A stretch of DNA of 64,000 nucleotides, taken from positions 15,754,775 through 15,818,774 of the forward strand of contig OZ023212.1 of the NCBI GenBank assembly GCA_963995525.1, in the 5' to 3' direction. A program made the translations under genes and the position numbers. Of this stretch, positions 12,401 to 61,400 are shown piece after piece. The notes beneath the pieces are model-generated. The model searched no databases. It was not told where the DNA came from and worked only from the letters and a program-made list of their open reading frames with translations. Source of the DNA: Escarpia spicata. Taxonomy: Eukaryota; Annelida; Polychaeta; Sabellida; Siboglinidae. Each line of letters starts with the position of its first letter. Within the stretch, counting starts at the first letter, position 1.

Positions 12401-15400
12401 CTGATCCACAAGGTGATGTCTGCTTAACAGTGTTGGCTCATTGCATATGTTTTGGGTAATTGATTTAAAATGTATATAAAAAATAACTTGTAAAGGTGCC
12501 ATTACAAAATGAGAATGTTAGGTACGTATAAATATGCACTACTCAAAATGTACTTTCCAATAGAAATAATTTTTTTCTTACAGAGATATAACCACATATC
12601 ATATCATAAGAAGATCAAGTCCTTCAAATATCATGGTTCTTGATGTGTTTTATTTTTATTTGGATGTTGTAATAAACAGCAAATATGTGGACTACATAAA
12701 TCGGTCTCTATAAACAATATTTCCAATATTTTCCTTGATTGAATGTATATACAGTGTATGTCACAATTTCATGTATTTTGTCAAACACAGACACAAAAAG
12801 GTTCTAAGGCCATGGATAATAGCTAAAATCAGTGGTGTAAAAAGTAGAAAATCATAAGAGACTATTTTTGGGTACTCCTAATTTTTTTAGAGGTTATATC
12901 TCTAAAACTGTTGGACTGTTGAAGTAGCTTGAGCTGGCAACTTACAGATAATTGGACTGCAATTGACCAGCACTTAAAAAGATGGTTGTATGGTAATTTT
13001 TGGAATGTCAAAGCATGTCAAAATCATGAGACACACTTTTTTTACAGTTTGCCAAAATAAACTTACCTATATACCAAATAAATAAGTAATTACAACACCA
13101 TGCATTTTTACTTTAACAGGAATATATTGTGTTGATTAAATCCATATTTTCAAGTGGATATATGTTACAGGTTCTTCTCACTCTCAGTCTGGGATTGGAC
13201 TGGTAAACTCTGCAGGGAATGCAGCCACACAAAATTCTGGATCACATGATCATCTTGCCTACATCTCTGAGACTGCACATGACCAAGATTTCGAGTTGCA
13301 ACGTTCGGGCATCGCAGAGGGACATGTGGGAGAACTGATGGTGCCCTCTGCTGGCCCCTCTGAACCAATTGTCTCGCACAGTGGCTCCGAAGACTGCTAT
13401 GATATGTCGGCAAACCCTCGAGGTAATTTCTTTCTTTTTCGTTTGCAGCAACAACGGTTCATTGCAACTAAACAATGTTGGTAACAGATTTATTCCACTA
13501 ATGCCAGAAACAAAACAATGTGATTTCTAACTGCAGCTCTTTGTGGCATCTGCATGAACTCTGTAGCTCAACTGGTTTAGCCCGGTGTTTAGACTTTAGT
13601 AAAAAGTGCATATTCTGTTGTTTAATAACTTTAATATAATTTGTCTAAAGACTTGATTTTGGTAGATACAGCTTGGCTTTGCTAAAAGAAACGGAGAAAG
13701 TCAATTCCTGGGCCCACATGCAGAACTGTTGGAGATATAAGTACACAAAGAATCGTATTTTTACAATATTGATATTACTAGGTGGTACATTGAGTGATGT
13801 TTGATTTATTAATTCTAGGAATCTGTCTTATCATTGACATTGAATCATTCCGGGACAACGAAGAAAGGACAGGCACCAAAGTTGATTGTGGTAACTATGC
13901 ATTGTTAAGTACTACTGTATAGGCTAAATTCACTCATGTCTATGGTACATTGAGATGTCAAATGCATCATTAAGTACCACTGTATAGGCTAAATTCACTC
14001 ATGTTTATGGTACATTGAGATGTCAAATGCATCGTTAAGTACCACTGTACAGGCTAAATTCACTCATGTTTATGGTACATTGAGATGTCAAATGCATCAT
14101 TAAGTACCACTGTATAGGCTAAATTCACTCATGTTTATGGTACATTGAGATGTCAAATGCATCGTTAAGTACCACTGTACAGGCTAAATTCACTCATGTC
14201 TATGGTACATTGAGATGTCAAATGCATCATTAAGTACCACTGTATAGGCTAAATTCACTCATGTCTATGGTACATTGAGATGTCAAATGCATCATTAAGT
14301 ACCACTGTATAGGCTAAATTCACTCATGTTTATGGTACATTGAGATGTCAAATGCATATTGGCCAGTCGTCTGAGGTAATGCTTTGTGTTCAGTAAGTAT
14401 ACAATTTTCTGTCAACATTTCTGGAAATCATAGACAGAGCCGCTAGTGAATATTACGCGTCTCATCAGTCCTCATGTAAATCATAGAACTAGAGCGAGGA
14501 CTACCTAGTACTGTATGCTAAACATACACACAGATGACAGTGTGGCTGATGGATCTCAATGCTTCAAGCAGTGGTCTGATTTCAACCATTTGCACATCAG
14601 TTGTTAGGGGCTGGATGAGTCCATTGTCTACCATATGTCAAACACCCCCCTTCTTGTGTGCACATCTTTGCTCCCTTCCACAATTTGTAGATGGCCCCAA
14701 ATGCCCCCCGTAAACATATAAAATCCCCAGAATGCCATAATGATATCATGTCGCTGTTGTTTCAGATAAACTGAAGAAGCTGTTTCAGAAGCTCCACTTT
14801 GAAGTTTCGGTAAAACGCAATAAGACAGCATCGGAAATCCTGGATCTGATGAACCAGTATTCCTCGAAAGACCACACCTCATTCAGTTGCTTCATCTGTT
14901 GTATCCTCACCCATGGCATGCTGGATAAAATATATGGGAGTGATTCAGCAACTGTCAATACCAGGGATCTGACATCCAGTTTTAAAGCATCCAAATGTCG
15001 AAGTTTGGTTGGGAAACCCAAACTCTTTTTTCTCCAAGCCTGTCAGAGCATTCCAGAGAAGAAGTCAGGTGAGATTTATTGGCTCTTTGCCAAGGGTCAT
15101 GGTTTATTTGGACCATGTTTTTGTACTGTGGGTTCATTATTTACCCACCAGACACTAAGGATTTATTTGCTGTGGATCTCAGATTTTTGTGTGCACTTTG
15201 GTTCATAATTTATTATTATTTAAGATTATCTCAGAGTATGTCCTGCACCTTCCAACCCCCACCGGCCAGCGTGGAAGGGTAGGCCAACAACACAGGTACA
15301 ATGAAGCCAAGGCCCCCAGTCCACAGCAGCATCGAAAGAGTCTATGACCAAGGAGGCGGTTCGGGTTTGACTACCGCGTATATCCCGACAAGCAGGCCAG

Positions 15401-18400
15401 ACATGGTCACAGACGTAACTGTCATCAACCAAGTCAACATCGGAAGTGACCACAGAATGGTAATGAGCAACATCAAACTGGATGTCAAGGCTGAAAGGAA
15501 GAAGTTGATAAACAATAGACCACCAAGTGGTCCACTTGGTGGAATTGATGGCTAGACATAGCTAGAAATGGCTTAGCAGTGGCCAACTCTTTCTTCCAGA
15601 AGCGAGAGAGCCATAAGATTACATACACAAGTGGACAGCACAAGACGGAACTGGATCTGATATAGTCCAGAGGCAGCAGCTAGGGAAGATTAAGGACTGC
15701 AAAGCTGTAGCTGGAGACCATGTCACGACACAGCACAAGTCAGTGGTGGTCGTTGAGCGTATGCAGAAGAAGAAAGAAACTAAGACCATGGGCTGCAGGA
15801 CTATTAAGTGGTGGAGGTGCAAAGACGATGTCGCTGTTGAATACAAGGAGCGGGTGACAGCTAAATATAAAGAGCTCAGTGAAGAAGTTAGCAATCTGGA
15901 GGAAGAATGGAAAAAGTACAAAGAAGCATTTGTGGGAACTGCAGAGGAGCTATGTGGAAGAACATCGGGAAAGGGAGGAGTGTCTGGAAGTAGTAACCAA
16001 GGATGGTGGACAAAAAAGAAGTTGCAGAAGCAGTGGGCGAAAAAATAGACAGAAATAGAGAAGACCAAGGAGAGGGGACATCAACCGGATGCAAGGCAGA
16101 TACACATATGGACAGAAAAAGAAAGTGGCAAAGAGAACTGTTGATAACTTAACGTAGGTTTCTCAGAATGGGCCAGCTATGAATTATCTAGGAGTATATA
16201 TATACATATATATATGTATATATATATATAAACATATGTATATGTAGCCAGCCTTATATATATATATATATATGTATTGCCATACTTTCTGATGTATTGC
16301 CATAATTTCCATATGGTACTGGCGTATTTGTTGCCTGCACCTAGGGCTAGAAGAGAATAAATCGATGTCGTTTCCTTAAGAAACGGCCATGTTTCAATTA
16401 AAACTCGTGTCTGTTTCCTTTCTTGCTGAAGTGCCATATAAATATATATATATACTCCTAGATAACACATGGCTGGCCCATTCTGAGAATCCCACGTTAA
16501 GCATTGGTTTCTGAATGTCAGGTGGATAATAGCATGGCTAGCTGTTGTATAACGTCAATAATATATTACACTGTTTATGTATGTAATTTCAGTGTTATCT
16601 GCCTATAAATCACTCATGTCTGTGGCACTCCTGAATGTAATTTATCATCTTGGATGTGTTGAAGAGATATTGTTTGAATAGAAAAGAAATTGTAGTTATG
16701 GAAGAGTAGACACAAGTACTTTGATTAATGTCACAAGTTAGCAACAATAACGTGGATAGTTTTTCATTTGCTAAATAACGTTATGAGTTTTGTTGAGTTA
16801 TATAATGTGTCATTTCTCATGCAGGCAGTGGTGTCAAGAAGGACTGCCTCAGTGCAATGATTCCAGAGATGGCAGACTTTCTTTTTGGGTTTGCTACTCC
16901 CCCTGGGTGCGTGGCATACCGGTGCGAAATTAACGGGACATGGTACATCAACAAACTGGTCGAGATGCTAGAGAAATATCACCAGAGGTTCGTAAAGCCT
17001 TTTTCTGCACCACACAATGCAACTTCTGTAAAATATGAGTGTGTTGTTAATGTTAAGTAATTTTAAACTTATTTCTGTTTAAAATGTTTTGATTGCCAAA
17101 AGAACATAAATTAGTACGTTGAGATGCTCGACAAATTTCATAGGAGGTTCATGTAGCCATTTCGACATCACCACAATCAGTATTGTGAAAACTGGTTTTC
17201 TTGTTTGTTAGTGGAGCATTTATTCATTAAAATATTTTATTAAAGTTAATTCTATTCATGGCAATACAAGTCTGAATGAGTTTTTGTTCATTATTTATTT
17301 ATTTTTATTTATACTGCTATATTTTATTGATTAACTTATGCATTGTAATTTATTAATTATATTATATTGTACTGTGTTTATTTTAAGTTAACATCTTACT
17401 ACCTTAATATTTGTATTATTATTGTATGGCACAATTTTTTGGTTTAAATGACAGTGTTAGTACTAATATTTTAGTTTAATGATCATGGCGCATGATGTAT
17501 TGTAAAGTGCCACGAACAATTGTGGATCTGGCGCTATAACAAATTAAATATATTATTATTATTATTAAAGCTTACATATAACAAACTAGCAACACTTAGG
17601 GGATATATCAAACTTGTCAAGTATTGTGCTCATACTTCTCACTGTTGTATGGTGAAGATTGTTTACATGTCATGTTTGATTGTATTATTTAACTATTTTA
17701 ACAAAAATGAAATCACAACGATGTCAAATCTATAAAATGTTACACCCTCGTGTCTTTTGTTTTAACTAAAATATTTTGCATAAAAATTCAAAATTAAACA
17801 CCTCACTATACAGCAGCGAGAAGATTTGGACAGATCTGTAAATGCCTATAGCAGGTATCTACACGAGCACAATATATATCATAGGCGGTGGAACCTGGGG
17901 GCCTCGGAGCTGAGCCCTCCAAAGGGCTCAATATTTAGGAAAGGGGTGGCATTCTATAGTGTAATTGGATTTTTTTTGTGGGTGACTGGAGAAAGGCTTA
18001 GCCCCCCAATATTTAGGGAAGTTGGTGTGAACACAATAAAACTTAAAAGATGCAAAGTTAACACCATCAAACTACAGAGCAATTAGCTTAATGTCTATTC
18101 CTGGTAAAGTATTCTGTACAATGATAGTCACAAGAATAGAAGACACCATTGATAGACACCTGTCAAAACAACAATTTGCTTTCAGGAGAAACAGGAACGA
18201 TAGATGCTATTTTCTAGCGCACCAGATCATAGAAAAGGGTAACGAACACCAGACCCCCCAACATTTCAATTCTGTGGACTTCAAGGCTGCATTTGACACC
18301 ATTTTGAGAGATTCATTATAGAAGATGCCGAGTTCTATTGATGTGAACTCTAGAATAACATCACAGACATTCACAGTTGTATATATTTATATATATATAT

Positions 18401-21400
18401 ATATATATAAAATTATCTACAACACCAGTATTCATTATTATAATTTCATAAATGTCTCCGATGCAGGTACTATACAAATTACTCTGTGGTTCAGGTTTTT
18501 AATTACATTTATGATTAACGTAGCTTTGATGAACTACTTTTCATTACTTCATGGTGTCTGTTCTTCTACTTACTAATTCTATTGCAGCGAGCACCTTCTA
18601 GATACCTTCACTACTTTTCATTACTTCATGGTGTCTGTTCTTCTACTTACTAATTCTATTGCAGCGAGCACCTTCTAGATACCTTCACTACTTTTCATTA
18701 CTTCATGGTGTCTGTTCTTCTACTTACTAATTCTATTACAGCGAGCACCTTCTAGATATCCTCACTACTTTTCATTACTTCATGGTGTCTGTTCTTCTAC
18801 TTACTAATTCTATTACAGCGAGCACCTTCTAGATATCCTCACTACTTTTCATTACTTCATGGAGTCTGTTCTTCTACTTACTAATTCTATTACAGCGAGC
18901 ACCTTCTAGATATCCTCACTACTTTTCATTACTTCATGGAGTCTGTTCTTCTACTTACTAATTCTATTGCAGCGAGCACCTTCTAGATATCCTCACTACT
19001 TTTCATTACTTCATGGAGTCTGTTCTTCTACTTACTAATTCTATTACAGCGAGCACCTTCTAGATATCCTCACTACTTTTCATTACTTCATGGAGTCTGT
19101 TCTTCTACTTACTAATTCTATTACAGCGAGCACCTTCTAGATATCCTCACTACTTTTCATTACTTCATGGTGTCTGTTCTTCTACTTACTAATTCTATTG
19201 CAGCGAGCACCATCTAGATATCCTCACTACTTTTCATTACTTCATGGTGTCTGTTCTTCTACTTACTAATTATATTACAGCGAGCACCTTCTAGATATCC
19301 TCACTACTTTTCATTACTTCATGGAGTCTGTTCTTCTACTTACTAATTCTATTACAGCGAGCACCTTCTAGATATCCTCACTACTTTTCATTACTTCATG
19401 GAGTCTGTTCTTCTACTTACTAATTCTATTACAGCGAGCACCTTCTAGATATCCTCACTACTTTTCATTACTTCATGGAATCTGTTCTTCTACTTACTAA
19501 TTCTATTACAGCGAGCACCTTCTAGATATCCTCACTACTTTTCATTACTTCATGGAGTCTGTTCTTCTACTTACTAATTCTATTGCAGCGAGCACCTTCT
19601 AGATACCTTCACTACTTTTCATTACTTCGTGGTGTCTGTTCTTCTACTTACTAATTCTGTTGCAGCGAGAACCTTCTAGATATCCTCACTACTTTTCATT
19701 ACTTCATGGTGTCTGTTCTTCTACTTACTAATTCTATTACAGCGAGCACCTTCTAGATATCCTCACTACTTTTCATTACTTCATGGAGTCTGTTCTTCTA
19801 CTTACTAATTCTATTACAGCGAGCACCTTCTAGATATCCTCACTACTTTTCATTACTTCATGGAGTCTGTTCTTCTACTTACTAATTCTGTTGCAGTGAG
19901 CACCTTCTAGATATCCTCACTACTTTTCATTACTTCATGGTGTCTGTTCTTCTACTTACTAATTCTATTGCAGCGAGCACCTTCTAGATATCCTCACTAC
20001 TTTTCATTACTTCATGGTGTCTGTTCTTCTACTTACTAATTCTGTTGCAGTGAGCACCTTCTAGATATCCTCACTACTTTTCATTACTTCATGGAGTCTG
20101 TTCTTCTATTTACTAATTCTATTGCAGCGAGCACCTTCTAGATATCCTCACTACTTTTCATTACTTCATGGAGTCTGTTCTTCTACTTACTAATTCTGTT
20201 GCAGTGAGCACCTTCTAGATATCCTCACTACTTTTCATTACTTCGTGGTGTCTGTTCTTCTACTTACTAATTCTATTGCAGCGAGCACCTTCTAGATATC
20301 CTCACTACTTTTCATTACTTCATGGTGTCTGTTCTTCTACTTACTAATTCTATTACAGCGAGCACCTTCTAGATATCCTCACTACTTTTCATTACTTCAT
20401 GGAGTCTGTTCTTCTACTTACTAATTCTGTTGCAGTGAGCACCTTCTAGATATCCTCACTACTTTTCATTACTTCGTGGTGTCTGTTCTTCTACTTACTA
20501 ATTCTATTACAGCGAGCACCTTCTAGATATCCTCACTACTTTTCATTACTTCATGGAGTCTGTTCTTCTACTTACTAATTCTATTACAGCGAGCACCTTC
20601 TAGATATCCTCACTACTTTTCATTACTTCATGGAGTCTGTTCTTCTACTTACTAATTCTATTGCAGCGAGCACCTTCTAGATATCCTCACTACTTTTCAT
20701 TACTTCATGGAGTCTGTTCTTCTACTTACTAATTCTATTACAGCGAGCACCTTCTAGATATCCTCACTACTTTTCATTACTTCATGGAGTCTGTTCTTCT
20801 ACTTACTAATTCTATTACAGCGAGCACCTTCTAGATATCCTCACTACTTTTCATTACTTCATGGTGTCTGTTCTTCTACTTACTAATTCTATTGCAGCGA
20901 GCACCTTCTAGATATCCTCACTACTTTTCATTACTTCATGGTGTCTGTTCTTCTACTTACTAATTATATTACAGCGAGCACCTTCTAGATATCCTCACTA
21001 CTTTTCATTACTTCATGGAGTCTGTTCTTCTACTTACTAATTCTATTGCAGCGAGCACCTTCTAGATATCCTCACTACTTTTCATTACTTCATGGTGTCT
21101 GTTCTTCTACTTACTAATTCTGTTGCAGTGAGCACCTTCTAGATATCCTCACTACTTTTCATTACTTCATGGAGTCTGTTCTTCTATTTACTAATTCTAT
21201 TGCAGCGAGCACCTTCTAGATATCCTCACTACTTTTCATTACTTCATGGAGTCTGTTCTTCTACTTACTAATTCTGTTGCAGTGAGCACCTTCTAGATAT
21301 CCTCACTACTTTTCATTACTTCGTGGTGTCTGTTCTTCTACTTACTAATTCTATTGCAGCGAGCACCTTCTAGATATCCTCACTACTTTTCATTACTTCA

Positions 21401-23420
21401 TGGTGTCTGTTCTTCTACTTACTAATTCTATTACAGCGAGCACCTTCTAGATATCCTCACTACTTTTCATTACTTCATGGAGTCTGTTCTTCTACTTACT
21501 AATTCTGTTGCAGTGAGCACCTTCTAGATATCCTCACTACTTTTCATTACTTCGTGGTGTCTGTTCTTCTACTTACTAATTCTATTACAGCGAGCACCTT
21601 CTAGATATCCTCACTACTTTTCATTACTTCATGGAGTCTGTTCTTCTACTTACTAATTCTATTACAGCGAGCACCTTCTAGATATCCTCACTACTTTTCA
21701 TTACTTCATGGAGTCTGTTCTTCTACTTACTAATTCTATTGCAGCGAGCACCTTCTAGATATCCTCACTACTTTTCATTACTTCATGGAGTCTGTTCTTC
21801 TACTTACTAATTCTATTACAGCGAGCACCTTCTAGATATCCTCACTACTTTTCATTACTTCATGGAGTCTGTTCTTCTACTTACTAATTCTATTACAGCG
21901 AGCACCTTCTAGATATCCTCACTACTTTTCATTACTTCATGGTGTCTGTTCTTCTACTTACTAATTCTATTGCAGCGAGCACCTTCTAGATATCCTCACT
22001 ACTTTTCATTACTTCATGGTGTCTGTTCTTCTACTTACTAATTATATTACAGCGAGCACCTTCTAGATATCCTCACTACTTTTCATTACTTCATGGAGTC
22101 TGTTCTTCTACTTACTAATTCTATTACAGCGAGCACCTTCTAGATATCCTCACTACTTTTCATTACTTCATGGAGTCTGTTCTTCTACTTACTAATTCTA
22201 TTACAGCGAGCACCTTCTAGATATCCTCACTACTTTTCATTACTTCATGGAGTCTGTTCTTCTACTTACTAATTCTATTACAGCGAGCACCTTCTAGATA
22301 TCCTCACTACTTTTCATTACTTCATGGAATCTGTTCTTCTACTTACTAATTCTATTACAGCGAGCACCTTCTAGATATCCTCACTACTTTTCATTACTTC
22401 ATGGAGTCTGTTCTTCTACTTACTAATTCTATTGCAGCGAGCACCTTCTAGATACCTTCACTACTTTTCATTACTTCGTGGTGTCTGTTCTTCTACTTAC
22501 TAATTCTGTTGCAGCGAGAACCTTCTAGATATCCTCACTACTTTTCATTACTTCATGGTGTCTGTTCTTCTACTTACTAATTCTATTACAGCGAGCACCT
22601 TCTAGATATCCTCACTACTTTTCATTACTTCATGGAGTCTGTTCTTCTACTTACTAATTCTATTACAGCGAGCACCTTCTAGATATCCTCACTACTTTTC
22701 ATTACTTCATGGAGTCTGTTCTTCTACTTACTAATTCTGTTGCAGTGAGCACCTTCTAGATATCCTCACTACTTTTCATTACTTCATGGTGTCTGTTCTT
22801 CTACTTACTAATTCTATTGCAGCGAGCACCTTCTAGATATCCTCACTACTTTTCATTACTTCATGGTGTCTGTTCTTCTACTTACTAATTCTGTTGCAGT
22901 GAGCACCTTCTAGATATCCTCACTACTTTTCATTACTTCATGGAGTCTGTTCTTCTATTTACTAATTCTATTGCAGCGAGCACCTTCTAGATATCCTCAC
23001 TACTTTTCATTACTTCATGGAGTCTGTTCTTCTACTTACTAATTCTGTTGCAGTGAGCACCTTCTAGATATCCTCACTACTTTTCATTACTTCGTGGTGT
23101 CTGTTCTTCTACTTACTAATTCTATTGCAGCGAGCACCTTCTAGATATCCTCACTACTTTTCATTACTTCATGGTGTCTGTTCTTCTACTTACTAATTCT
23201 ATTACAGCGAGCACCTTCTAGATATCCTCACTACTTTTCATTACTTCATGGAGTCTGTTCTTCTACTTACTAATTCTGTTGCAGCGAGCACCTTCTAGAT
23301 ATCCTCACTCGAGTGAATAAGGAAGTTTGCAACATCGTTGGACAAACAGAAGATGGAGACGTCTGCAAGCAGGTTCCCTGGCCAACGTATTCTTTGACAA
23401 AGAAAGTCTTCTTCCATTAG
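9157..23420 (+). CDS. CASP8-like: caspase-8/10-like initiator caspase gene, 8 coding exons
   Basis: Joining 9157-9479, 10127-10371, 11969-12412, 13171-13422, 13819-13890, 14766-15068, 16825-16987 and 23285-23420 keeps one frame throughout. The joined frame is 1938 bases, about 645 residues. Order: DED1 (about 10-95), DED2 (about 108-190), a repeat-rich linker (about 190-420), then the caspase large and small subunits. FICCILTHG supplies the catalytic His and FFLQACQS the catalytic Cys. Arg in ESFRDNEER and VAYRCE match the S1-pocket arginines of caspase-8. In the caspase-8 family such proteins bind FADD-type adaptors through the DEDs and start apoptosis in the cytosol. The protein is longer than human caspase-8 (479) because of the linker. 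Start: the ATG follows an acceptor directly, so a non-coding exon should lie upstream. A cFLIP-like regulator is less likely because both catalytic residues are present. Confidence 0.9.
10127..10371 (+). CDS. CASP8-like: caspase exon: second death effector domain
   Basis: The acceptor is CTTTCTTCCAG and the donor is GGAA followed by GTAAGT. The exon encodes ILFKVWRELTKENVNSMKF, MCEGLLNRSL, HLFTTLEESGHLS and a VIGREDLHELF ending, a second DED closely related to the first (SMKF against AMKF). Entry phase 2 and exit phase 1 fit both neighbours. Tandem DEDs are the caspase-8/10/cFLIP arrangement. Confidence 0.88.
10808..11790 (-). mobile_element. non-LTR retrotransposon 3' end (CR1/L2-like) in caspase intron
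   Basis: Antisense to the caspase gene. The open frame at 11161-11673 encodes KLKLNANKTELIIIGT, a LGVIFDSNF reverse-transcriptase thumb motif, SSVAKTIATALVSSRLDYCN and LHWLPVRYRILFK. The plus-strand left end is an (AAT)n tract followed by the reverse complement of the tail seen at 5760-5812. Frameshifts break the rest, so the copy is dead. Confidence 0.85.
11969..12412 (+). CDS. CASP8-like: caspase exon: 14-residue repeat linker
   Basis: The acceptor is TATATGCTGTAG and the donor CAAG followed by GTGATG. The exon is phase 1 on both sides. After a Gln/His-rich start, six 14-residue units follow the pattern GHAAESVESVAPSP with variation, about 42 bases each. It ends CCDASADPQG. The region is polar, acidic and probably disordered. 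It joins DED2 to the protease, much longer than in vertebrate caspase-8. Its start and end resemble those of the next exon. No function is assigned to the repeat. Confidence 0.75.
13171..13422 (+). CDS. CASP8-like: caspase exon: second linker exon, related to the previous one
   Basis: The acceptor is TATGTTACAG and the donor CGAG followed by GTAATT, phase 1 on both sides. It encodes 83 polar residues including AEGHVGELMVPSAG, which parallels ETVGELVAPSTG in the preceding exon. It ends CYDMSANPRG, which parallels CCDASADPQG. This suggests an ancestral exon duplication followed by repeat growth in the first copy. Being symmetrical, either exon could be skipped without a frame change. Confidence 0.75.
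13819..13890 (+). CDS. CASP8-like: caspase exon: start of protease domain
   Basis: The acceptor is TTAATTCTAG and the donor TGTG followed by GTAACT. This 72-base exon encodes GICLIIDIESFRDNEERTGT and KVDC. It matches the caspase beta-1 strand and the Arg of the S1 pocket (CLIINN...IRDRNGT in human caspase-8). It is phase 1 on both sides. A 65-bp minisatellite starts six bases into the following intron. Confidence 0.85.
13897..14362 (+). repeat. 65-bp minisatellite at a 5' splice site (~7 copies)
   Basis: The unit runs ATGCATCATTAAGTACCA, then CTGTATAGGCTAAATTCACT, then CATGTTTATGGTACATTGAG, then ATGTCAA. The first copy starts six bases after the donor of the 13819-13890 exon. The unit junction GTCAAATGCAT aligns with the intron start GTAACTATGCAT. 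Copies are over 95% alike, so the array is young. Alternate units carry linked variants (ATC/GTT, TAT/TAC). Confidence 0.9.
14766..15068 (+). CDS. CASP8-like: caspase exon: catalytic large subunit
   Basis: The acceptor is GTTGTTTCAG and the donor TCAG followed by GTGAGA. It encodes KLKKLFQKLHFEVSVKRNKT, then FSCFICCILTHG with the catalytic His, DKIYGSDSATVN, and LVGKPKLFFLQACQS with the catalytic Cys. Human caspase-8 has CFICCILSHG and QACQG, so the match is close. The Gly after QACQ is Ser here. The exon ends in a short IPEKKSG stretch that begins the inter-subunit linker. Confidence 0.92.
15260..16130 (+). mobile_element. non-LTR retrotransposon endonuclease fragment
   Basis: Broken plus-strand frames encode a Thr-rich stretch, TSRPDMVTDVTVINQVNIGS and DHRMVMSNIKLD. 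The GSDHRMV motif is the end of an AP-endonuclease domain of a LINE. Lys-rich linker sequence then follows (KEETKT.GC, KYKELSEEVS). Internal stops and frame changes show it is dead. It lies within a caspase intron, in sense orientation. Confidence 0.75.
16149..16500. mobile_element. piggyBac-type MITE with TTAA flanks
   Basis: The left end reads TTAA then CGTAGGTTTCTCAGAATGGG. The reverse complement of the right end reads TTAA then CGTGGGATTCTCAGAATGGG. Terminal inverted repeats extend about 55 bases, into a TTATCTAGGAGTATATATAT segment on both sides. TTAA on both flanks is the target-site signature of piggyBac elements. The 350-base interior has (TA)n runs and no transposase. Confidence 0.8.
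16825..16987 (+). CDS. CASP8-like: caspase exon: small subunit
   Basis: The acceptor is TTTCTCATGCAG and the donor AGAG followed by GTTCGT, a weak site chosen because it alone gives phase 2 for the last exon. It encodes KKDCLSAMIPEMADFLFGFA, then CVAYRCEINGTWYINKL and VEMLEKYHQ. This matches human [20 protein letters not shown] and GTWYIQSL. The only Asp in the linker between the catalytic Cys and ADFLFG is the KKDC one, so the usual pair of inter-subunit cleavage sites is not obvious. Confidence 0.9.
17488..17572 (+). mobile_element. possible retroelement 3' tail
   Basis: TTGTAAAGTGCCACGAACAA and GGCGCTATAACAAATTAAAT are followed by (TTA)n. GGCGCTATA..AAATAAA next to a trinucleotide tail resembles other retroelement 3' ends in this window (38450, 41730). 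Only the tail is visible. Confidence 0.35.
18030..18321 (+). mobile_element. non-LTR reverse transcriptase fragment
   Basis: This plus-strand frame encodes NYRAISLMSIPGKVFCTMIV, HLSKQQFAFRRNR and VDFKAAFDTI. These are the first reverse-transcriptase motifs of a LINE (PSNYR..SL, Q.GFR, D..KAFD). It stops at 18321, just upstream of the 77-bp array in the last caspase intron. Confidence 0.8.
18533..23309 (+). repeat. 77-bp minisatellite carrying the 3' splice site and exon start (62 acceptor copies)
   Basis: The first CAG acceptor ends at 18587 and the authentic one at 23284. The distance is 4697 bases, exactly 61 units of 77 with no net length change. Each unit reads ACTTTTCATTACTTCATGG, then (A/T)GTCTGTTCTTCTACTTAC, then TAATTCT(A/G)TT(A/G)CAG, then CGAGCACCTTCTAGATATCC and TCACT. 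The last 25 bases equal the first 25 of the final caspase exon. Linked variants recur at 1078 bases (14 units), 1771 (23 units) and 2849 bases (37 units), showing block duplications. Substitutions are few. Confidence 0.97.
23285..23420 (+). CDS. CASP8-like: caspase last exon
   Basis: The acceptor is the final array unit, TCTGTTGCAG. With the split codon AG|C the exon encodes EHLLDILTRVNKEVCNIVGQ, then TEDGDVCKQVPWPTYSLTKK and VFFH, then TAG at 23418-23420. This matches the caspase C-terminus (ILTEVNYEVS..FTLRKKLVF in human caspase-8). Splicing to any upstream array copy would give EHLLDILTTFHYFM and a stop in the next unit, losing the last beta strand. Confidence 0.9.
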
Positions 23421-28241: not shown

Positions 28242-28455
28242 CTATTTCTTCACATCTTCCCGACTCGTGATTTCTATGCACAGCAGAATGAAGACGTTAT
28301 TGCAGCTGTATTTCTCCAGGTCTAATAGTTTGTTTTTGAGCAGTGAACTGCCAAAGCCCGTCTGTTCGATCGAGTTGCTGTCCCACGCGTCACAGTACGA
28401 CTCGGGCTTGCGCTGACCGAACGCATCGGAACCATGCCAGATTATCTTCTGCGGC
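28242..28455 (-). CDS. COL15/18-like: collagen exon 22: endostatin C-terminal part
   Basis: The acceptor TTTGTTTGCAG is followed by G completing the Trp codon, then [39 protein letters not shown] and [13 protein letters not shown]. Human endostatin has [20 protein letters not shown] and the C..AYIVLCIE ending. It supplies three of the four conserved cysteines. The chain ends EDVKK with TAG at 28242-28244. Confidence 0.95.
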
Positions 28456-49400: not shown

Positions 49401-52400
49401 TGAATATAGCACCACAGTAACTCACACGTCCCTTCAGTGGCTACATACACAATCTGTGTTGAATATAGCACCACAGTAACTCACACGTCCCTTCAGTGGC
49501 TACACAGACAATCTGTGTTGAATACAGCACCACAGTAACTCACACGTCCCTTCAGTGGCTACACAGACAATCTGTGTTGAATATAGCACCACAGTAACTC
49601 ACACGTCCCTTCAGTGGCTACATACACAATCTGTGTTGAATATAGCACCACAGTAACTCACACGTCCCTTCAGTGGCTACACACACACAATCTGTGTTGA
49701 ATATAGCACCACAGTAACTCACATGTCCTTTCAGTGGCTACACACACAATCTGTGTTGAATATAGCACCACAGTAACTCACACGTCCCTTCAGTGGCTAC
49801 ACACACACAATCTGTGTTGAATATAGCACCACAGTAACTCACACGTCCCTTCAGTGGCTACACACACACAATCTGTGTTGAATACAGCACCACAGTAACT
49901 CACACGTCCCTTCAGTGGCTACACAGACAATCTGCGTTGAATACAGCACCACAGTAACTCACAAGTCCCTTCAATGGCTACACAGACAATCTGTGTTGAA
50001 TATAGCACCACAGTAACTCACACGTCCCTTCAGTGGCTACACACACACAATCTGTGTTGAATATAGCACCACAGTAACTCCCACGTCCCTTCAGTGGCTA
50101 CACAGACAATCTGTGTTGAATACAGCACCACAGTAACTCACACGTCCCTTCAGTGGCTACACACACACAATCTGTGTTGAATATAGCACCACAGTAACTC
50201 ACACGTCCCTTCAGTGGCTACACAGACAAACTGTGTTGAATACAGCACCACAGTAACTCACACATCCCTTCAGTGGCTACACAGACAATCTGTGTTGAGT
50301 ATAGCACCACAGTAACTCACACGTCCCTTCAGTGGCTACACACACACAATCTGTGTTGAATATAGCACCACAGTAACTCACACGTCCCTTCAGTGGCTAC
50401 ACAGACAATCTGTGTTGAATACAGCACCACAGTAACTCACACATCCCTTCAGTGGCTACACAGACAATCTGTGTTGAATATAGCACCACAGTAACTCACA
50501 CATCCCTTCAGTCGCTACACAGACAATCTGTGTTGAATATAGCACCACAGTAACTCACACGTCCCTTCAGTGGCTACATACACAATCTGTGTTGAATATA
50601 GCACCACAGTAACTCACACGTCCCTTCAGTGGCTACACAGACAATCTGTGTTGAGTACAGCACCACAGTAACTCACACGTCCCTTCAGTGGCTACACAGA
50701 CAATCTGTGTTGAATATAGCACCACAGTAACTCACACGTCCCTTCAGTGGCTACATACACAATCTGTGTTGAATATAGCACCACAGTAACTCACACGTCC
50801 CTTCAGTGGCTACACAGACAATCTGTGTTGAATACAGCACCACAGTAACTCACACGTCCCTTCAGTGGCTACACAGACAATCTGTGTTGAATATAGCACC
50901 ACAGTAACTCACACGTCCCTTCAGTGGCTACACACACACAATCTGTGTTGAATATAGCACCACAGTAACTCACACGTCCCTTCAGTGGCTACACACACAC
51001 AATCTGTGTTGAATATAGCACCACAGTAACTCACACGTCCCTTCAGTGGCTACACACACAATCTGTGTTGAATATAGCACCACAGTAACTCACACGTCCC
51101 TTCAGTGGCTACACACATACAATCTGTGTTGAATATAGCACCACAGTAACTCACACGTCCCTTCAGTGGCTACACAGACAATCTGTGTTGAATATAGCAC
51201 CACAGTAACTCACACGTCCCTTCAGTGGCTACATACACAATCTGTGTTGAATATAGCACCACAGTAACTCATACGTCCCTTCAGTGGCTACACACACAAT
51301 CTGTGTTGAATATAGCACCACAGTAACTCACACATCCCTTCAGTGGCTACACACACACAATCTGTGTTGAATATAGCACCACAGTAACTCACACGTCCCT
51401 TCAGTGGCTACACACACACAATCTGTGTTGAATATAGCACCACAGTAACTCACACGTCCCTTCAGTGGCTACACAGACAATCTGTGTTGAATATAGCACC
51501 ACAGTAACTCACACGTCCCTTCAGTGGCTACACAGACAATCTGTGTTGAATATAGCACCACAGTAACTCACACGTCCCTTCAGTGGCTACACACACACAA
51601 TCTGTGTTGAATATAGCACCACAGTAACTCACACGTCCCTTCAGTGGCTACACAGACAATCTGCGTTGAATACAGCACCACAGTAACTCACAAGTCCCTT
51701 CAATGGCTACACAGACAATCTGTGTTGAATATAGCACCTCAGTAACTCACACGTCCCTTCAGTGGCTACACAGACAATCTGTGTTGACTATAGCACCACA
51801 GTAACTCACACGTCCCTTCAGTGGCTACACAGACAATCTGTGTTGAATATAGCACCACAGTAACTCACACGTCCCTTCAGTGGCTACACACACACAATCT
51901 GTGTTGAATACAGCACCACAGTAACTCACACGTCCCTTCAGTGGCTACACAGACTATCTGTGTTGAATATAGCACCACAGTAACTCACACGTCCCTTCAG
52001 TGGCTACACAGACAATCTGTGTTGAATATAGCACCACAGTAACTCACACGTCCCTTCAGTGGCTACACACACACAATCTGTGTTGAATACAGCACCACAG
52101 TAACTCACACGTCCCTTCAGTGGCTACACAGACTATCTGTGTTGAATATAGCACCACAGTAACTCACACGTCCCTTCAATGGCTACACAGACAATCTGTG
52201 TTGAATATAGCACCACAGTAACTGACACATCCCTTCAGTGGCTACACACACAATCTGTGTTGAATATAGCACCACAGTAACTCACACGTCCCTTCAGTGG
52301 CTACACACACACAATCTGTGTTGAATATAGCACCACAGTAACTCACACGTCCCTTCAGTGGCTACACAGACAATCTGTGTTGAATATAGCACCACAGTAA

Positions 52401-55400
52401 CTCACACGTCCCTTCAGTGGCTACACAGACAATCTGTGTTGAATATAACACCACAGTAACTCACACGTCCCTTCAGTGGCTACACAGACAATCTGTGTTG
52501 ACTATAGCACCACAGTAACTCACACGTCCCTTCAGTGGCTACACAGACAATCTGTGTTGAATATAGCACCTCAGTAACTCACACGTCCCTTCAGTGGCTA
52601 CACAGACAATCTGTGTTGACTATAGCACCACAGTAACTCACACGTCCCTTCAGTGGCTACACAGACAATCTGTGTTGAATACAGCACCACAGTAACTCAC
52701 ACATCCCTTCAGTGGCTACACAGACAATCTGTGTTGAATATAGCACCACAGTAACTCACACGTCCCTTCAGTGGCTACACACACACAATCTGTGTTGAAT
52801 ATAGCACCACAGTAACTCACACGTCCCTTCAGTGGCTACACACACACAATCTGTGTTGAATACAGCACCACAGTAACTCACACGTCCCTTCAGTGGCTAC
52901 ACAGACAATCTGTGTTGAATACAGCACCACAGTAACTCACACGTCCCTTCAGTGGCTACACAGACTATCTGTGTTGAATATAGCACCACAGTAACTCACA
53001 CGTCCCTTCAGTGGCTACACAGACAATCTGTGTTGAATATAGCACCACAGTAACTCACACGTCCCTTCAGTGGCTACACAGACAATCTGTGTTGAATACA
53101 GCACCACAGTAACTCACACGTCCCTTCAATGGCTACACAGACAATCTGTGTTGAATATAGCACCACAGTAACTCACACGTCCCTTCAATGGCTACACAGA
53201 CAATCTGTGTTGAATATAGCACCACAGTAACTCACACGTCCCTTCAGTGGCTACAAACACAATCTGTGTTGAATATAGCACCACAGTAACTCACACGTCC
53301 CTTCAGTGGCTACACAGACAATCTGTGTTGAATATAGCACCACAGTAACTCACACGTCCCTTCAGTGGCTACATACACAATCTGTGTTGAATATAGCACC
53401 ACAGTAACTCACACGTCCCTTCAGTGGCTACACAGACAATCTGTGTTAAATATAGCACCACAGTAACTCACACGTCCCTTCAGTGGCTACATACACAATC
53501 TGTGTTGAATATAGCACCACAGTAACTCACGGGGAATCCTGGCAGCCCTATCTCTCCCATGATGCCTGAAGGTCCCCTTTTCCCCGGTCGACCCAGTATC
53601 CCAGGTTTTCCCGGCAGTCCCGGGTAGCCGGGCTCTCCCTTGGCTGCACTGCAGTTGCGACACACTCCCGGCTCCCCTTTCTCCCCCTGCAAGGGCTGTG
53701 GGAAAAGATATGAACGACATCAACATCATGTTCACATTACAACATCCTAACTGCATATCTATATTATTATTTGTTATTATTATTACTAGCATTTCTATAG
53801 CGCCATATCTCCGGGACCAGCCTGTTCATAGGTGCGTACACATATCCACGTTCAGCCAATCAGCACCGCTGTGCTGCACATGCTGCTACGCGGAACGATG
53901 GCGCACGCTGTATGAATATTTTTGATAACAAAATCATGTTTTGCACAACAAATATTTCAGAGTTTGCCACCAATCTCTGATTTTTGATTCTAAATATATA
54001 TCAACGTAATTTCAAAGTTGTGTTATTTAAACTTTGAAGATGAAGCACAAAAGTGACTTTTTCTCAAAACAAAGAATATGGATATATTGCGTTTTGCCCT
54101 AAAACCCTTCTTCATACAATTACACTTTACGCAGTAATAAAACACTCACATTTAAAATTGTGTGCCTTTTTTGCGTCACACTTGCACATTATTTGAGTTA
54201 TACTTGTCGAGCGTACCATCGTAACACAGAGAATGAAATCTATTACCTGGATGTTTCTCGGAATAACTGGTAGTGCATTGCCATCAGCATCTGTGTACAC
54301 GTTTGCTGGTGGTCCAGGGGGCCCTCGGGGTCCAGCAATTCCTGATTTCCCATCCTTGCCTGGTAACCCCTAGGGTCAACAACAACCAACATTTCAAAAG
54401 AGGAAAACAACAAGCTGTGTGTAATACGGTAATACACAACATTTTGACACTTTTATAGGACTGACGCATATTTACGGATATTGATCAAAAGTATATGTAT
54501 TATAAAAAAGTTGCATGTAAAAACACATTTAATCACCCTGGAATGGACTAATGATCCAGCTTTATCACCTTTTCCAATATTCGAATGCACATATCTAACT
54601 TATTTCAAGGACGATCTTTCCCTTTCACGCTGTTGTGTGAAATTATATCACTCCTTGATAGTGAATCAAACATTTCTACTTGTGTACTAAGAACATTTTT
54701 GTCATTTAACTCCTTGAAAGCATCTTCTGCCTCTGTACGTGGGTTCCGTCTGCGGGATGGGCATTTTTATTATTATAATTAACACACTGTTAATTTTATA
54801 TAACAGTTTGAGTGAGTGAAAACAATCCTGCACTAGGTCGACACAACCATAAAACAATTGGGTAAGTGAAGGTTCTGACACAGGAAGCACGCACAGTAGA
54901 TGTGGAAGAAGATTCAAGATTCAATAACTTTATTGTCCGTTTAAAACATTGCAGGAAAAACATAAATTTTCCTTTAGATACACATTGAAATGGCAGTAAT
55001 AAAATTGGTAATAAAACGCATTATGGTCAGCACTAAAAATTTATATAAAAAATAAAAATAATAATAAATAAATAAAACACTCATACCACAAGATTTCATA
55101 CTTGTTCTGCTGTAAACAGTTTACTTAAAACTAGCATTTAAGATTAAAATGGCACAGGGAATAAACAATATCTTAAGCAAGAACTCACAATGGGCCCAGT
55201 CAATCCTGGTTCTCCCATGTCTCCGGGGATACCCTGGGAGCCGACTGCCCCAGGCACACCGGGAAGGCCTGGGGTGCCACTGGGCCCTCTCTCTCCCTGG
55301 TTCCCCGTGTCCCCCTTCGCACCCTGAAACATCAAACAGAACCACTAGTAACACCTTCCAACAAGCCTCACATCATGTCTTCTTCATGTTGTATTTCATA

Positions 55401-58400
55401 GTTACTGTTGTAAGTGTAATAAAATACAATATGAGACGCCATACTACTATTGTAACTTTTTATTGTAATCACTCATTTAAGTATTAATCGTATCCACCAA
55501 TGTCAGGGCATAACTGTCTGACTTGTAATCTAGCATGGACAGTCAAAATATACTCCATCATAAAAAGAAGGTATTTTGAAATTTGACATATTTTTCCGAG
55601 ATGACAAATGTTCGAATTTTTTCACAGTAAAAATACTAAGATGTGGATGAGATTTTGAACTGTCTCTTCTGACCTTTCCTGCAGCAACAGAAAGTTGTAA
55701 ATCCTCAGACTGCTAAACAATTGTTGTAACAGATATAGTACACTTACCAGGTCACATAGTACACTTACCAGGTCACAGGGTACACTTATTGGGGTAGGGT
55801 ACACTTTCTGGGTCACAGAGTACACTCACTGGGTCCAATGGTACACTATGTCACATGGTACTGTGTCACAGAGTACACGTACTGTGTCACAGAGTACACT
55901 TACCGTGTCACAGAGTACACTTACCGAGACACAGAGTACACTTACCGTGTTACAGAGTACACTTACTAGATCACAGAGTACACTTAGTGGGTCACAGAGT
56001 ACACTTACTGGGTCACAGAGTACACTTACTGGGACACAGACTACACTTACTGGGACACAGACTACACTTACTGGGTCACAGACTACACTGACTGGGTCAC
56101 AGAGTACACTTACCGAGACAGAGAGTACACTTACCGTGTTACAGAGTACACTTACTAGATCACAGAGTACACTTAGTGGGTCACAGAGTACACTTACTGG
56201 GTCACAGAGTACACTTACTGGGACACAGACTACACTTACTGGGACACAGACTACACTGACTGGGTCACAGACTACACTGACTGGGTCACAGAGAACACTT
56301 ACCGAGACACAGAGTACACTTACCGTGTTACAGAGTACACTTACTAGATCACAGAGTACACTTAGTGGGTCACAGAGTACACTTACTGGGTCACAGAGTA
56401 CACTTACTGGGACACAGACTACACTTACTGGGACACAGACTACACTGACTGGGTCACAGACTACACTGACTGGGTCACAGAGAACACTTACCGAGACACA
56501 GAGTACACTTACCGTGTTACAGAGTACACTTACTAGATCACAGAGTACACTTAGTGGGTCACAGAGTACACTTACTGGGTCACAGAGTACACTTACTGGG
56601 ACACAGACTACACTTACTGGGACACAGACTACACTGACTGGGTCACAGACTACACTGACTGGGTCACAGAGAACACTTACCGAGACACAGAGTACATTTA
56701 CCGGGTTACAGAGTATATTTACCAGATCACAGAATACACTTACTGGGTCACAGAGTACACTTACTGGGTCAGAGTACAATTACAGGTCACTGAGTGCACA
56801 TACCGGGTCTCCGGCTGGACCGTTGGTGACCTTGCCGTCCAGTGTTTTTACAATCCCTGGCAGTCCTCTGGGTCCAGGCTCTCCCTGTTTTCCCGGAGCT
56901 CCTGGCTTCCCAACGCCGGGTGGCCCGATATCACCCTGTCAGTAACATGTCAATTGCAACATTATGGCATCTCTTCTCAACTCAAAGGGGTCTAATATCA
57001 CCATATCAATAATATCTTTATTCTACTTTTATTGCTTGATTCCCAACTTTAACTGGACCATTATCACCCAATTACAAAGAAAATAGATTACAATTTGATT
57101 ACATACTTCCCAACTCGAAGTAGAACAATGACACTACCACTAAAACAATATTATGATTACATCATACTATCTGTCTAGATAATTTCTTTCTTTCTTCTGC
57201 TTCAGCAAGTAGAATACATAGACATAATAATAATACATTATTTTATATAAATAAGCTTACTGATAGAAACTATTTTAATATTATAATAATATATAAATAT
57301 CCTAAATAAACAATCAAAGCCCAGTATCAGTGCCACCCCCCAGACTTCATCCACATGGTGGTGACCAGGTCCAATGTGACAGAAACAGACACAAGGTGGA
57401 GACCAGGACCCAGACCAGGTCCATGGTGACAGTGACAGACACAAGGTGGAGACCAGGACCCAGACCAGGTCCATGGTGAGTGACAGATACAAGGTGGAGA
57501 CCAGGACCCAGACCAGGTCCATGGTGACATTGACAGACACAAGGTGGAGACCAGGACCCAGACCAGGTCCATGGTGACAGTGACAGACACAAGGTGGAGA
57601 CCAGGACCCAGACCAGGTCCATGGTAACAGTGAGACACAAGGTGGAGACCAGGACCCAGGCCAGATCCATGGTGACAGTGAGACACAAGATGGAGACCAG
57701 GACCCAGACCAGGTCCATGATGACAGTGACAGATACAAAGTGGAGACCAGGTCCAAGGTGACAGTGACATACACAAGGTGGATACCAGGACCCAGACCAG
57801 GTCCATGGTGACAGTGACTGACACAAGGTGGAGACCAGGACCCAGATCAGGTCCATGGTGACAGTGACAGACACAAGGTGGAGACCAGGACCCAGACCAG
57901 GTCCATGGTGACAGTGACAGACACAAGGTGGAGACCAGGACCCAGACCAGGTCCATGGTGACAGTGACAGACACAAGGTGGAGACCAGGACCCAGACCAG
58001 GTCCATGATGACAGTGAGACACAAGGTGGAGACCAGGACCCAGGCCAGATCCATGGTGACAGTGAGACACAAGATGGAGACCAGGACCCAGACCAGGTCC
58101 ATGGTGATAGTAACAGACACAAGGTGGAGACCAGGACCCAGACCAGGTCCATGGTGAGTGACAGACACAAGGTGGAGACCTGGACCCAGACCAGGTCCAT
58201 GGTGAGTGACAGATACAAGGTGGAGACCAGGACCCAGGCCAGGTCCATGGTGACAGTGACATACACAAGGTGGAGACCAGTACCCAGACCAGGTCCATGG
58301 TGACAGTGAGACACAAGATGGAGACCAGGACCCAGACCAGGTCCGTGGTGAGTGACAGATACAAGGTGGATACCAGGACCCAGACCAGGTCCATGGTGAC

Positions 58401-61400
58401 AGTGACAGACACAAGGTGGAGACCAGGACCCAGATTAGGTCCATGGTGACAGTGACAGACACAAGGTGGAGACTAGGACCCAGACCAGGTCCATGGTGAC
58501 AGTGACAGACACAAGGTGGACACCAGGACCCAGACCAGGTCCATGATGACAGTGAGACACAAGGTGGAGACCAGGACCCAGGCCAGATCCATGGTGACAG
58601 TGAGACACAAGATGGAGACCAGGACCCAGACCAGGTCGATGGTGATAGTAACAGACACAAGGTGGAGACCAGGACCCAGACCAGGTCCATGGTGACAGTG
58701 ACAGACACAAGGTGGAGACCAGGACCCAGACCAGGTTCATGGTGAGTGACAGATACAAGGTGGAGACCAGGACCCAGACCAGGTCCATGGTGACAGTGAC
58801 AGACACAAGGTGGAGACCAGGACCCAGACCAGGTCGATGGTGATAGTAACAGACACAAGGTGGAGACCAGGACCCAGACCAGGTCCATGGTGACAGTGAC
58901 AGACACAAGGTGGAGACCAGGACCCAGACCAGGTCCATGGTGAGTGACAGATACAAGGTGGAGACCAGGACCCAGACCAGGTCCATGGTGACAGTGACAG
59001 ACACAAGGTGGAGACCAGGACCCAGACCAGGTCCATGGTGACAGACACAAAGTGGAAACCAGGACCCAGACCAAGTCCATGGTGACAGACACATGGTGGA
59101 GACCAGGACCCAGATCAGGTCCATGGTGACAGTGACAGACACAAGGTGGAGATCAGGTCCCAGACCAGGTCCATGGTGACAGTGACAGATTGTCATACCT
59201 GGTCTCCTTTCAGCCCTCGCTGGCCAACAGCTCCCACAACCCCAGGAAGACCAGTGGCACCATCTGCGCCCTGTTCACCTATGAAGCCCTGCGGCCCTTC
59301 AGCGCCCTGGAAACCCTGCAACATGACAGACAGGTCCACACGTTGCAGTAAAAACAGTAAGGACAGTATTCAAAACAATATCAAATTGTCCTGCATCAGC
59401 TGCTGAGGGACCGGACAGCATGTTTTCTGATATTTGGGGGATCAAACCAGTGAATCTGTCAATATTTTCAAAGAGAATGCTCCAGAACAACACTGACTAT
59501 TAAGACTAAATGATTGTTTGACTTATTTGTGCTATAACACATTAAATGAAATATGTATATTTTTTTAATATTCCAAATAACAAAATATCTGCCTTGGGGA
59601 AATGTCCGGCCATCATCTCCTGACAGAACATGATTTACAGTGTAAGAAAAACATTTTCTGCACTGTACGGATAATCTAATCCAAACCACGCATCAACGAA
59701 AACATTTATTATTCTTATCTGACAGCTATTACATTCAATATGCATTTTTCTTCTATAACATTCCGTCATATGACGTGATTTCCCAGAGCCTCACCCGTTC
59801 CCCCTTGCTCCCCTTCTCTCCTGTGTATCCGCGTTCTCCCATATCTCCTGGTCTTCCTCGAGGCCCTGTCTTTCCCGGTGCTCCTGGCAACCCGGGCTTT
59901 CCAGCCCTAACTGGGTTCCCAATCATGGGCAGGTCCGCTTCTCCAGAGCCTGTTCCCTGGAACACGGAAAGGGACAAGGAATTAAATTAAACATAATCAA
60001 ACAGAACTAAACCTGATTATTAATAAATTATAATTTTGTATATTGCTTTGAGCTGTATTTATTTTAAAATGGTAATGATTAGCATTTATATATATATTTT
60101 AAGAAATTCTAGACCATATTTTAATATGTTGAGAACCAATGTGAATAATCTGGCGCTACGTGTAACACATTATTATTGTATATTCTTGTTGACCAATTCG
60201 AAAAACCTTCAAAACGTCAATCTTAAATAAAAAAGCATCATCCCGCTAATAAATAAATTATAATAAACAAATTCACTCCTTTAACCTTTAATAACTGGCT
60301 AGATTGCTACATAATAATAACTGTTATTACTAAAATGCTTAAAACTGGCTAAATACACACAAAAATAACATAATTCAGTCAACCAAGTAAAGAATGGTTG
60401 TCATTCTTACCTCCTCCGTTTCAGGGTACCCTACGGTGGATCCGGGGGGCCCTGGGGGTCCAGAAAGGCCTCGTGGCCCTACACTTCCTGGCAGACCATC
60501 ATTCCCTGCATCCCCCTTCAGGCCGGGGAGACCATGTAGACCGGACTTACCGGGGTCACCCTGAAACACCCCCTGGTTGTTACAGGTAGGTCCTTACAGC
60601 TCACCTGGGTTACGCACTGCGCATAGACAGTGCAAGGCTAACTGTATCTGCAGAAAGTTGTGAGACAATGACCCACGTAGGTAATTAATCACAATATAAA
60701 GTAACATTGACATACGTACCTAGGGCTATGTGTCCTAGTCTATTTGGCTGGTTCTTTTATTTATTCAATTTTTTACTATAAAATACGGCAATTTAAATCA
60801 GGAGTTACAATTTTTAATACTAATAATACAAATAATTTTGACTCATATCCAGAGTACAGCTCTGTTCAAGGGTGTTGACAATGTGTCTAAAATATTAATA
60901 CTTATATAATGATTAATACCGCTACTGAAAATAGGGTTAATAAAATAAAACGTGTTCCAAAAAATTTGTTACAACAAATTTATCTCTCTTAAAGCATTTG
61001 ATTTATATAATGCTCCTCCAACGTTTGTTGCTAACAATGCATTGCACCGTGGCTTGAGCAGAACATGTTCACACAAACATCACATCAACTTCCATTGAAA
61101 CTCTCAGCCACTCTACAACTGCTACACAAAACCTGTCCATTCTTATAATTCCACAAGTGGCTATTGTCAGGTATTCACAGTTAACTGAGCTAGGGCAAAC
61201 TGGGGTTAACAAAATTCCCATGTTTTAAAATATCTCCACGTGGACTACAGTCACCTCAATTGATTTTCCAGTGGTCAAACCACATTGCTACCCAACAAGT
61301 CCACGACCTTCTCTAGTGAGTTACACAGAGACAGACACATCTCCATCATTACAGCTTCGTCCAAAATAAAACTTTCATGTGTCCAGACACCGCTGTGGCT

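What the first reader, a model, noticed from the sequence alone, without database searches (positions are those of the whole stretch)
13819..59315. Minisatellites anchored at splice sites in two neighbouring genes on opposite strands
Six tandem arrays with unrelated units (65, 77, 37, 59, 21 and ~50 bp) each sit at an exon edge. Five start at or within about 30 bases of a 5' splice site (caspase exon at 13890; collagen exons at 43026, 53531, 56804 and 59199). One ends at a 3' splice site (23284). In three the unit contains the splice site itself, and in two of those exon bases as well. Random insertion of minisatellites into introns of this size would not place all six on exon borders. This points to a process that starts tandem duplication at exon/intron junctions. 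I recall similar 5'-junction minisatellites in amphioxus Adh (not verified); an acceptor-end array may be new.
Basis: partly seen in the sequence, partly recalled or inferred. Interest (0 to 1): 0.92.

Follow-up and report, generated by a model that had tools for sequence, protein, structure and literature searches.

The report
Tandem repeats sitting on exon edges
In this animal's genome, long runs of repeated DNA tend to sit at or beside the places where genes are spliced, a known oddity of amphioxus genes that is seen here at larger scale in what is probably a different kind of animal.

Summary
The window holds a DED-caspase gene (+) and a multiplexin (collagen XV/XVIII) gene (-); I rebuilt 28 exons with open frames. 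All six named arrays lie at the stated splice junctions, with gaps of -25 to 44 bp. Of 7 intronic arrays with TRF score >=100, 6 sit there (combined P 4e-7). Weaker repeats add one old acceptor-side and one old donor duplication. Three more junction arrays of the same collagen gene lie just outside the window. In 18 stretches of other genes (104 EGF exons), 13 of 41 arrays fell within 45 bp of a called splice site against 4.6 expected (P 1.4e-4). The tendency is therefore not confined to the window, but most arrays elsewhere are not at called junctions, and 3 other collagen stretches gave 0 of 4.

This is the "mirage" phenomenon of amphioxus (PMC3087553, PMC3902484; passages read). Acceptor-end arrays are already published, so that novelty claim fails. 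The animal is unnamed: 1.06 Gb genome, invertebrate mitochondrial code, no Branchiostoma among the named protein hits. It is probably a protostome, which would be new territory. Why junctions would seed duplication remains unexplained.

The parts
9157..23420 (+). DED-DED caspase-8-like gene, 8 coding exons: 9157-9479, 10127-10371, 11969-12412, 13171-13422, 13819-13890, 14766-15068, 16825-16987, 23285-23420
   Evidence: open frame, 645 residues plus stop; Pfam DED 2.1e-34, Peptidase_C14 2.2e-56; caspase-8 best in PDB. The 532-aa relative P0001 aligns across borders 1/2, 5/6 and 7/8 without extra residues at them.
28242..62320 (-). Multiplexin (collagen XV/XVIII-like) gene, 20 exons in the window, 958-aa open frame, ending in trimerization domain and endostatin; continues upstream outside the window
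   Evidence: Endostatin 2.4e-66, Collagen_trimer 1.6e-7; 19 introns, each GT-AG in the model.
13897..14357 (+). Array A: 65 bp x 7.1, begins 6 nt after the end of caspase exon 5 (13890)
18533..23309 (+). Array B: 77 bp x 62, ends 25 nt inside caspase exon 8 (first base 23285); the unit carries a pyrimidine tract, AG and 25 exon bases; 62 acceptor copies
42754..42981 (-). Array C: 37 bp x 6.2, 44 nt after the end of collagen exon 10 (43026); degenerate copies reach the donor and probably 11 exon bases
46855..53530 (-). Array D: 59 bp x 112, begins exactly at the donor of collagen exon 9 (exon ends 53531); 108 copies of GTGAGT
55737..56809 (-). Array E: 21 bp x 51.8 with 189-bp higher order, begins 6 nt inside collagen exon 6 (exon ends 56804); unit = exon end GACCC plus donor-like GTAAGT
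57363..59189 (-). Array F: 50 bp x 37.5, begins 9 nt after the end of collagen exon 5 (59199)
16945..17204 (+). Old two-copy duplication of the exon 7 end plus donor of the caspase gene (16945-17047 and 17104-17204): 43 exon bases plus 60 intron bases, decayed
   Evidence: score 62 against shuffle mean 26.8, sd 3.9, 0 of 1000 shuffles as high
34126..34232 (-). Old 58-bp tandem duplication ending 9 nt before collagen exon 17 (first base 34116)
   Evidence: (0 of 1000 shuffles as high)
36782..36906 (-). Coding 21-bp array (7 codons) in collagen exon 16 that ends 9 nt before the exon's donor

Best explanation
These are 'mirages': short tandem duplications that arise on or beside an exon-intron junction and then grow by slippage or unequal exchange into minisatellites. 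Splicing goes on using the outermost copy, the one that touches the intact exon, so the array is carried as intron. The enrichment is mainly mutational: junctions are places where small tandem duplications start more often than elsewhere in introns. Shown: position, enrichment here and in other genes, units that copy exon end plus splice site, and a spread of ages from decayed two-copy forms to about 112 copies at 92-100% identity. Inferred: the mutational bias, growth by slippage or exchange, and use of the outermost site.
For: Junction positions. Other genes: 13 of 41 arrays within 45 bp, 4.58 expected, P 1.4e-4; for score >=300, 9 of 22 against 1.8, P 1.8e-5. Of eight thresholds tried, seven give P below 0.02 (at 10 bp, 3 of 41, P 0.09), and period and score filters keep it. 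Units that copy exon end plus donor: L038 at two donors, an exon upstream of the window, array E; exon start plus acceptor: array B. Ages differ: decayed pairs, 95-100% copies in B. The six units are unrelated: 0 of 30 pairs and strands at P<0.05. Reading on from the exon meets a stop within 3-48 nt in all 5 donor arrays, and 61 of 61 inner acceptor copies of B lead to a stop after 30 residues, so inner sites would give truncated products.
Against: 28 of 41 arrays in the sample are farther than 45 bp from a called exon (some may lie by exons that are not EGF exons). The replication half alone is weak (4 of 20, P 0.08; Fisher 0.02). Three collagen stretches gave 0 of 4. In A and F no copy in the array is as strong a donor as the true one. 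No cause of a junction bias was found: DNA folding of the units is ordinary. No transcripts or polymorphism of this animal were seen.
Confidence: 0.68

Rival explanations
1. Selection keeps the arrays: extra copies of donor or acceptor signals beside an exon help it to be recognised, or the long introns tune splicing.
For: In D, 96 sites score at least as high as the true donor, and in E 28, with none on the opposite strand. Several units carry GTAAGT or GTGAGT.
Against: A and F hold no donor copy as strong as the true one and C holds one. Acceptor-side arrays in other genes stop 3-45 nt short of the exon in all nine cases. Shuffles of D's own bases also give many donors above its weak true site (mean 63).
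Confidence: 0.17
2. The arrays are traces of intron birth: tandem duplication of exon sequence containing a splice-like site made the intron.
For: Proposed for amphioxus globins (PMC3087553, passages read); some units here include exon plus splice site.
Against: 31 of 33 EGF hits inspected begin at the same phase-1 acceptor (the other two lie inside exons with two EGF units), which suggests old, shared introns (that such borders are ancient is recalled). Arrays sit at one end of introns that also hold unrelated sequence.
Confidence: 0.08
3. Chance plus selection of the window: a minisatellite-rich genome in which some window must show arrays at junctions.
For: The genome is rich in arrays (22 with score over 200 in 80 kb of flanks) and the window was chosen for this feature.
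Against: Stretches chosen only by EGF exon hits show an excess too.
Confidence: 0.05

Closest known systems
Mirages of amphioxus (Adh3, globins BflGb6 and BflGb9, PGBD5, troponin C)
   Same: Minisatellite-like tandem repeats spanning or abutting exon-intron borders, at both donor and acceptor ends, with units that repeat exon plus splice site; described as not disturbing splicing (PMC3087553 passages; PMC3902484 passages).
   Different: The globin cases in those passages have few copies (3 or 6 units in BflGb6 haplotypes). Here there are up to 112 copies, 9 junctions touched in two genes within the window, and a distance test in other genes. The animal is probably not an amphioxus.
Intron gain by tandem duplication of AGGT-containing exon sequence
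   Same: Tandem duplication across splice-like sites in genes.
   Different: No evidence here that any of these introns is new.
Introner elements
   Same: Repeated sequence with splice signals in introns.
   Different: Introners are related copies in many introns (recalled); the six units here are unrelated to one another.

Membership tests
Mirages (amphioxus type) | Minisatellite-like tandem repeats in genes | tested here: met
Mirages (amphioxus type) | Repeats span or abut an exon-intron boundary | tested here: met
Mirages (amphioxus type) | Both 5' and 3' boundaries affected | tested here: met
   Array B and collagen exon 17 acceptor; L045, L048, L049, L050
Mirages (amphioxus type) | Regular splicing continues | tested here: inconclusive
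   A relative protein, P0001, is collinear across two affected borders; no transcript of this animal was seen
Mirages (amphioxus type) | Repeat number varies between haplotypes or cells | not testable with these tools
   One assembly only
Mirages (amphioxus type) | Reported host group is Cephalochordata | tested here: inconclusive
Introner elements | Homologous copies in several introns | tested here: not met
   The six units are unrelated; the 77-bp unit matched only its own array in the genome, 62 places listed. The other five units were not searched genome-wide.
Intron gain by tandem duplication | Intron absent from relatives | not tested
   No orthologous gene structure was available

The most novel reading that the evidence does not exclude
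Splice junctions, donor and acceptor alike, are genome-wide mutational hot spots for tandem duplication in an animal outside the cephalochordates, so that something tied to exon edges (splicing, transcription or a base-composition step) seeds minisatellites and can multiply splice sites by the dozen.
Probability: 0.4. Interest if true: 0.82.

Novelty: new member of a known kind. Interest (0 to 1): 0.62.

Why it matters
Minisatellites are often treated as landing at random in introns. An excess at splice sites in unrelated genes makes the origin of such arrays testable in one assembly, and bears on how introns lengthen, how new exon borders could arise, and how the spliceosome picks one true site among 62 acceptor or 108 donor-like copies. 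If the animal is not an amphioxus, the trait is not a chordate curiosity.

Tried and rejected
Species: the caspase-domain search gave the unnamed P0001 (55%), then molluscs (40-46%) and mammals (43-45%). The multiplexin tree places the window with P0003 and protostomes at only 87/87, and the caspase tree leaves it unresolved beyond P0001. Rfam (gathering threshold) and tRNA scans were empty. COX1 reads in the invertebrate code (that AGA and AAA fall at conserved Ser and Lys positions is my recall of COX1). Amphioxus genome size of about 0.5 Gb is recalled.

Hairpin-forming units as the cause: no unit folds clearly better than its shuffles (C could not be scored, C and E were folded as two and three copies). 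A shared seed motif: none (which replaces the unit comparison; that one had a faulty null for the reverse strand). Collagen exons as the wider sample: 17 of the 20 stretches fetched were simple repeats mimicking Gly-X-Y; the 3 real ones (L024, L035, L036) showed 0 of 4 arrays near the exon. This set was given up for the EGF set before any EGF result was known. A local-alignment scan of 52 splice sites gave ten with score above 27 and p below 0.04: the six arrays, casp_d7, col_a17, and two where coding repeats explain the score (col_a14, col_d16); the random positions there excluded arrays.

Literature: searches. Beyond amphioxus I saw no report of minisatellites concentrated at splice sites; the library holds open-licence papers only. 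Passages of an amphioxus huntingtin and a VCBP paper mention tandem repeats but no mirages. Earthworm metallothionein and abalone TSSK1 papers report intronic minisatellites, but the passages do not place them at junctions. Canestro 2002 was not held (one search used a wrong DOI) and is known to me only through the two papers read in part.
Full report
WHAT IS THERE. The window is G000:C9:15754775-15818774 of a 1,060,511,957-base assembly in 1097 contigs. It holds two convergent animal genes. On the + strand is a gene with two death effector domains and a caspase domain (Pfam DED 2.1e-34, Peptidase_C14 2.2e-56; best solved structures caspase-8), with eight coding exons from 9157 to 23420 and an open frame of 645 residues (one search had exon 7 one base short, and one search checks the frame with exon 7 ending at 16987). 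On the - strand is a multiplexin, the collagen XV/XVIII type, with 20 exons from 62320 down to 28242 giving one open frame of 958 residues across 19 GT-AG introns and ending in an endostatin domain (2.4e-66). The relative P0001, a 532-residue protein, aligns across the exon 5/6 and 7/8 borders of the caspase gene, where two of the arrays lie, without extra residues (query with the linker left out). It supports those borders, but its DNA was not seen.

THE ARRAYS. TRF finds the six arrays with the stated units. Distances from array edge to junction are 6, -25, 44, 0, -6 and 9 bp for units of 65, 77, 37, 59, 21 and 50 bp (negative means the array runs into the exon). The 26 introns total 43,526 bp. 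Seven intronic arrays have score >=100 and period >=10; six are these, and the seventh (35715-35789) is 983 bp from a splice site. Placing each array at random in its own intron gives a Fisher P of 4.4e-7 for all seven. A self-comparison listed 11 duplication events (the two large arrays B and D were entered as given); with one low-complexity event dropped, 7 of 10 lie within 45 bp of a splice site (P 6e-7 own-intron, 5e-8 any-intron). The seventh near event is an old 58-bp duplication just before the acceptor of collagen exon 17. A gapped comparison adds a decayed copy of the end of caspase exon 7 plus its donor, 157-159 bp downstream. These P values come from a window chosen because of the arrays.

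ANATOMY. The 77-bp unit of array B holds a pyrimidine tract, AG and 25 bases of exon 8. The array has 62 acceptor copies; the last leads to the full protein, and all 61 inner copies run into a stop 30 residues on. Array D starts exactly at the donor; it has 108 copies of GTGAGT, and 96 sites score at least as high as the true donor on a matrix made from the window's other donors, against a mean of 63 in base shuffles and 0 on the other strand. In E the unit is the end of exon 6 plus its donor, and 28 copies score at least as high as the true site against 0.7 in shuffles. In A and F no copy does, and in C one does. Reading from the exon into each of the five donor arrays meets a stop after 3 to 48 bases. 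Copies in B are 95-100% and in D 92-100% like the consensus; E is most worn near its two ends. The six units are unrelated (0 of 30 pairs and strands at P<0.05).

JUST OUTSIDE THE WINDOW. I fetched 80 kb of flanks. In the upstream part of the multiplexin gene three more arrays touch junctions: a 20-bp array starting at a donor, a 21-bp array ending about 13 bases before an acceptor, and a 35/47-bp array whose unit repeats the end of an exon plus its donor (exon borders there read by eye, not modelled). Other arrays in the flanks were not scored, as exons there are unknown.

OTHER GENES. To leave the chosen window I took places hit by the EGF_CA family (150 scored hits of 4183 candidates, a capped list). 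I picked stretches by how many hits they held, without seeing arrays, and fetched 10 and then 8 stretches on seven large contigs. Exons were called by an EGF pattern; the acceptor was the AG at the expected phase-1 position and the donor the first in-phase GT within 40 bases of the last cysteine, which is loose and can miss the true donor by a few bases. This gave 104 exons (76 and 28); in the first set 147 of 152 edges carried the expected signal. The threshold of 45 bp came from the window. First set: 9 of 21 arrays (score >=80), 2.8 expected, P 4e-4. Second set: 4 of 20, 1.8 expected, P 0.08, Fisher 0.02. Pooled: 13 of 41, 4.6 expected, P 1.4e-4; with score >=300, 9 of 22, 1.8 expected, P 1.8e-5. 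Only introns bounded by called exons: 12 of 30, 3.6 expected, P 3e-5. At a 10-bp threshold the excess is not significant (3 of 41, P 0.09). Of the nine near arrays of the first set, four are at donors and five at acceptors; the four of the second set are all at acceptors. In L038 two donors show textbook cases, where exon end plus GTAAGT is repeated again and again. Against this, three real collagen stretches showed 0 of 4 arrays near their exons, and 28 of 41 arrays in the EGF set are farther than 45 bp from a called exon.

WHAT IT IS. This matches the 'mirages' of amphioxus: minisatellite-like duplications of intron-exon boundaries in Adh3, globin genes, PGBD5 and troponin C. I read passages of PMC3087553 and PMC3902484. 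The first states that both 5' and 3' boundaries are affected and that the mechanism is unclear; BflGb6 is an acceptor-end case, so such arrays are not new. New here, as far as my nine literature searches show (open-licence library only), are the size (up to 112 copies), the number in two neighbouring genes, and a distance test in other genes.

WHICH ANIMAL. Unnamed. Mitochondrial COX1 reads with AGA as serine and AAA as lysine, which excludes the vertebrate, tunicate and echinoderm/flatworm codes and leaves protostomes, cephalochordates and a few others (code knowledge recalled). The closest named caspases are molluscan. The multiplexin tree groups the window with P0003 and protostomes at 87/87, which is not strong. 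I think a protostome is likely and a cephalochordate possible.

HOW IT PROBABLY WORKS. Small tandem duplications arise near exon edges more often than elsewhere in introns, some grow into arrays, and splicing keeps using the copy that touches the whole exon. The spread of ages and the unrelated units favour a recurring mutational process over one inserted element. The start point is not fixed: among the near cases it ranges from 45 bases inside an exon to 45 bases into the intron. I found no cause: unit folding is ordinary and no motif is shared.

Noticed in passing
9479: The first caspase coding intron appears to use a GC donor (CAG|gcatgt); P0001 is collinear across it.
   Followed up: partly
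12074-12341: Coding 42-bp array (14 codons) in caspase exon 3, in the linker between the DED and caspase domains; P0001 has a different, shorter linker.
   Followed up: partly
13783-13794: A 12-base word of array A (TGGTACATTGAG) also occurs just upstream of the acceptor of the same exon (exon 5), on the other side of the exon from the array.
   Followed up: partly
59198-59207 and array F: The exon end GGAGACCAGG is matched in reverse complement by the unit of the array that follows it (CCTGGTCTCC).
   Followed up: no
29729-30109: Transposase-like open frame with a Psq-type helix-turn-helix (1.9e-7) in the last multiplexin intron; a further open frame follows to about 30700.
   Followed up: partly
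35315-35464: Inverted repeat with arms of about 60 bp (35315-35374 and about 35405-35464) in multiplexin intron 16.
   Followed up: partly
5072-5659 and 11164-11718: Open frames that look like fragments of a non-LTR retrotransposon (recalled resemblance; no Pfam match for the first; the second not scanned).
   Followed up: partly
G000:C9 flanks, L009-L016: The genome is rich in tandem arrays: 22 with score over 200 in 80 kb; at least one of them may be coding (84-bp unit that looks like zinc fingers, not scanned).
   Followed up: partly
25723-26138: 32-bp array x13 between the two convergent genes, not at a known exon.
   Followed up: no
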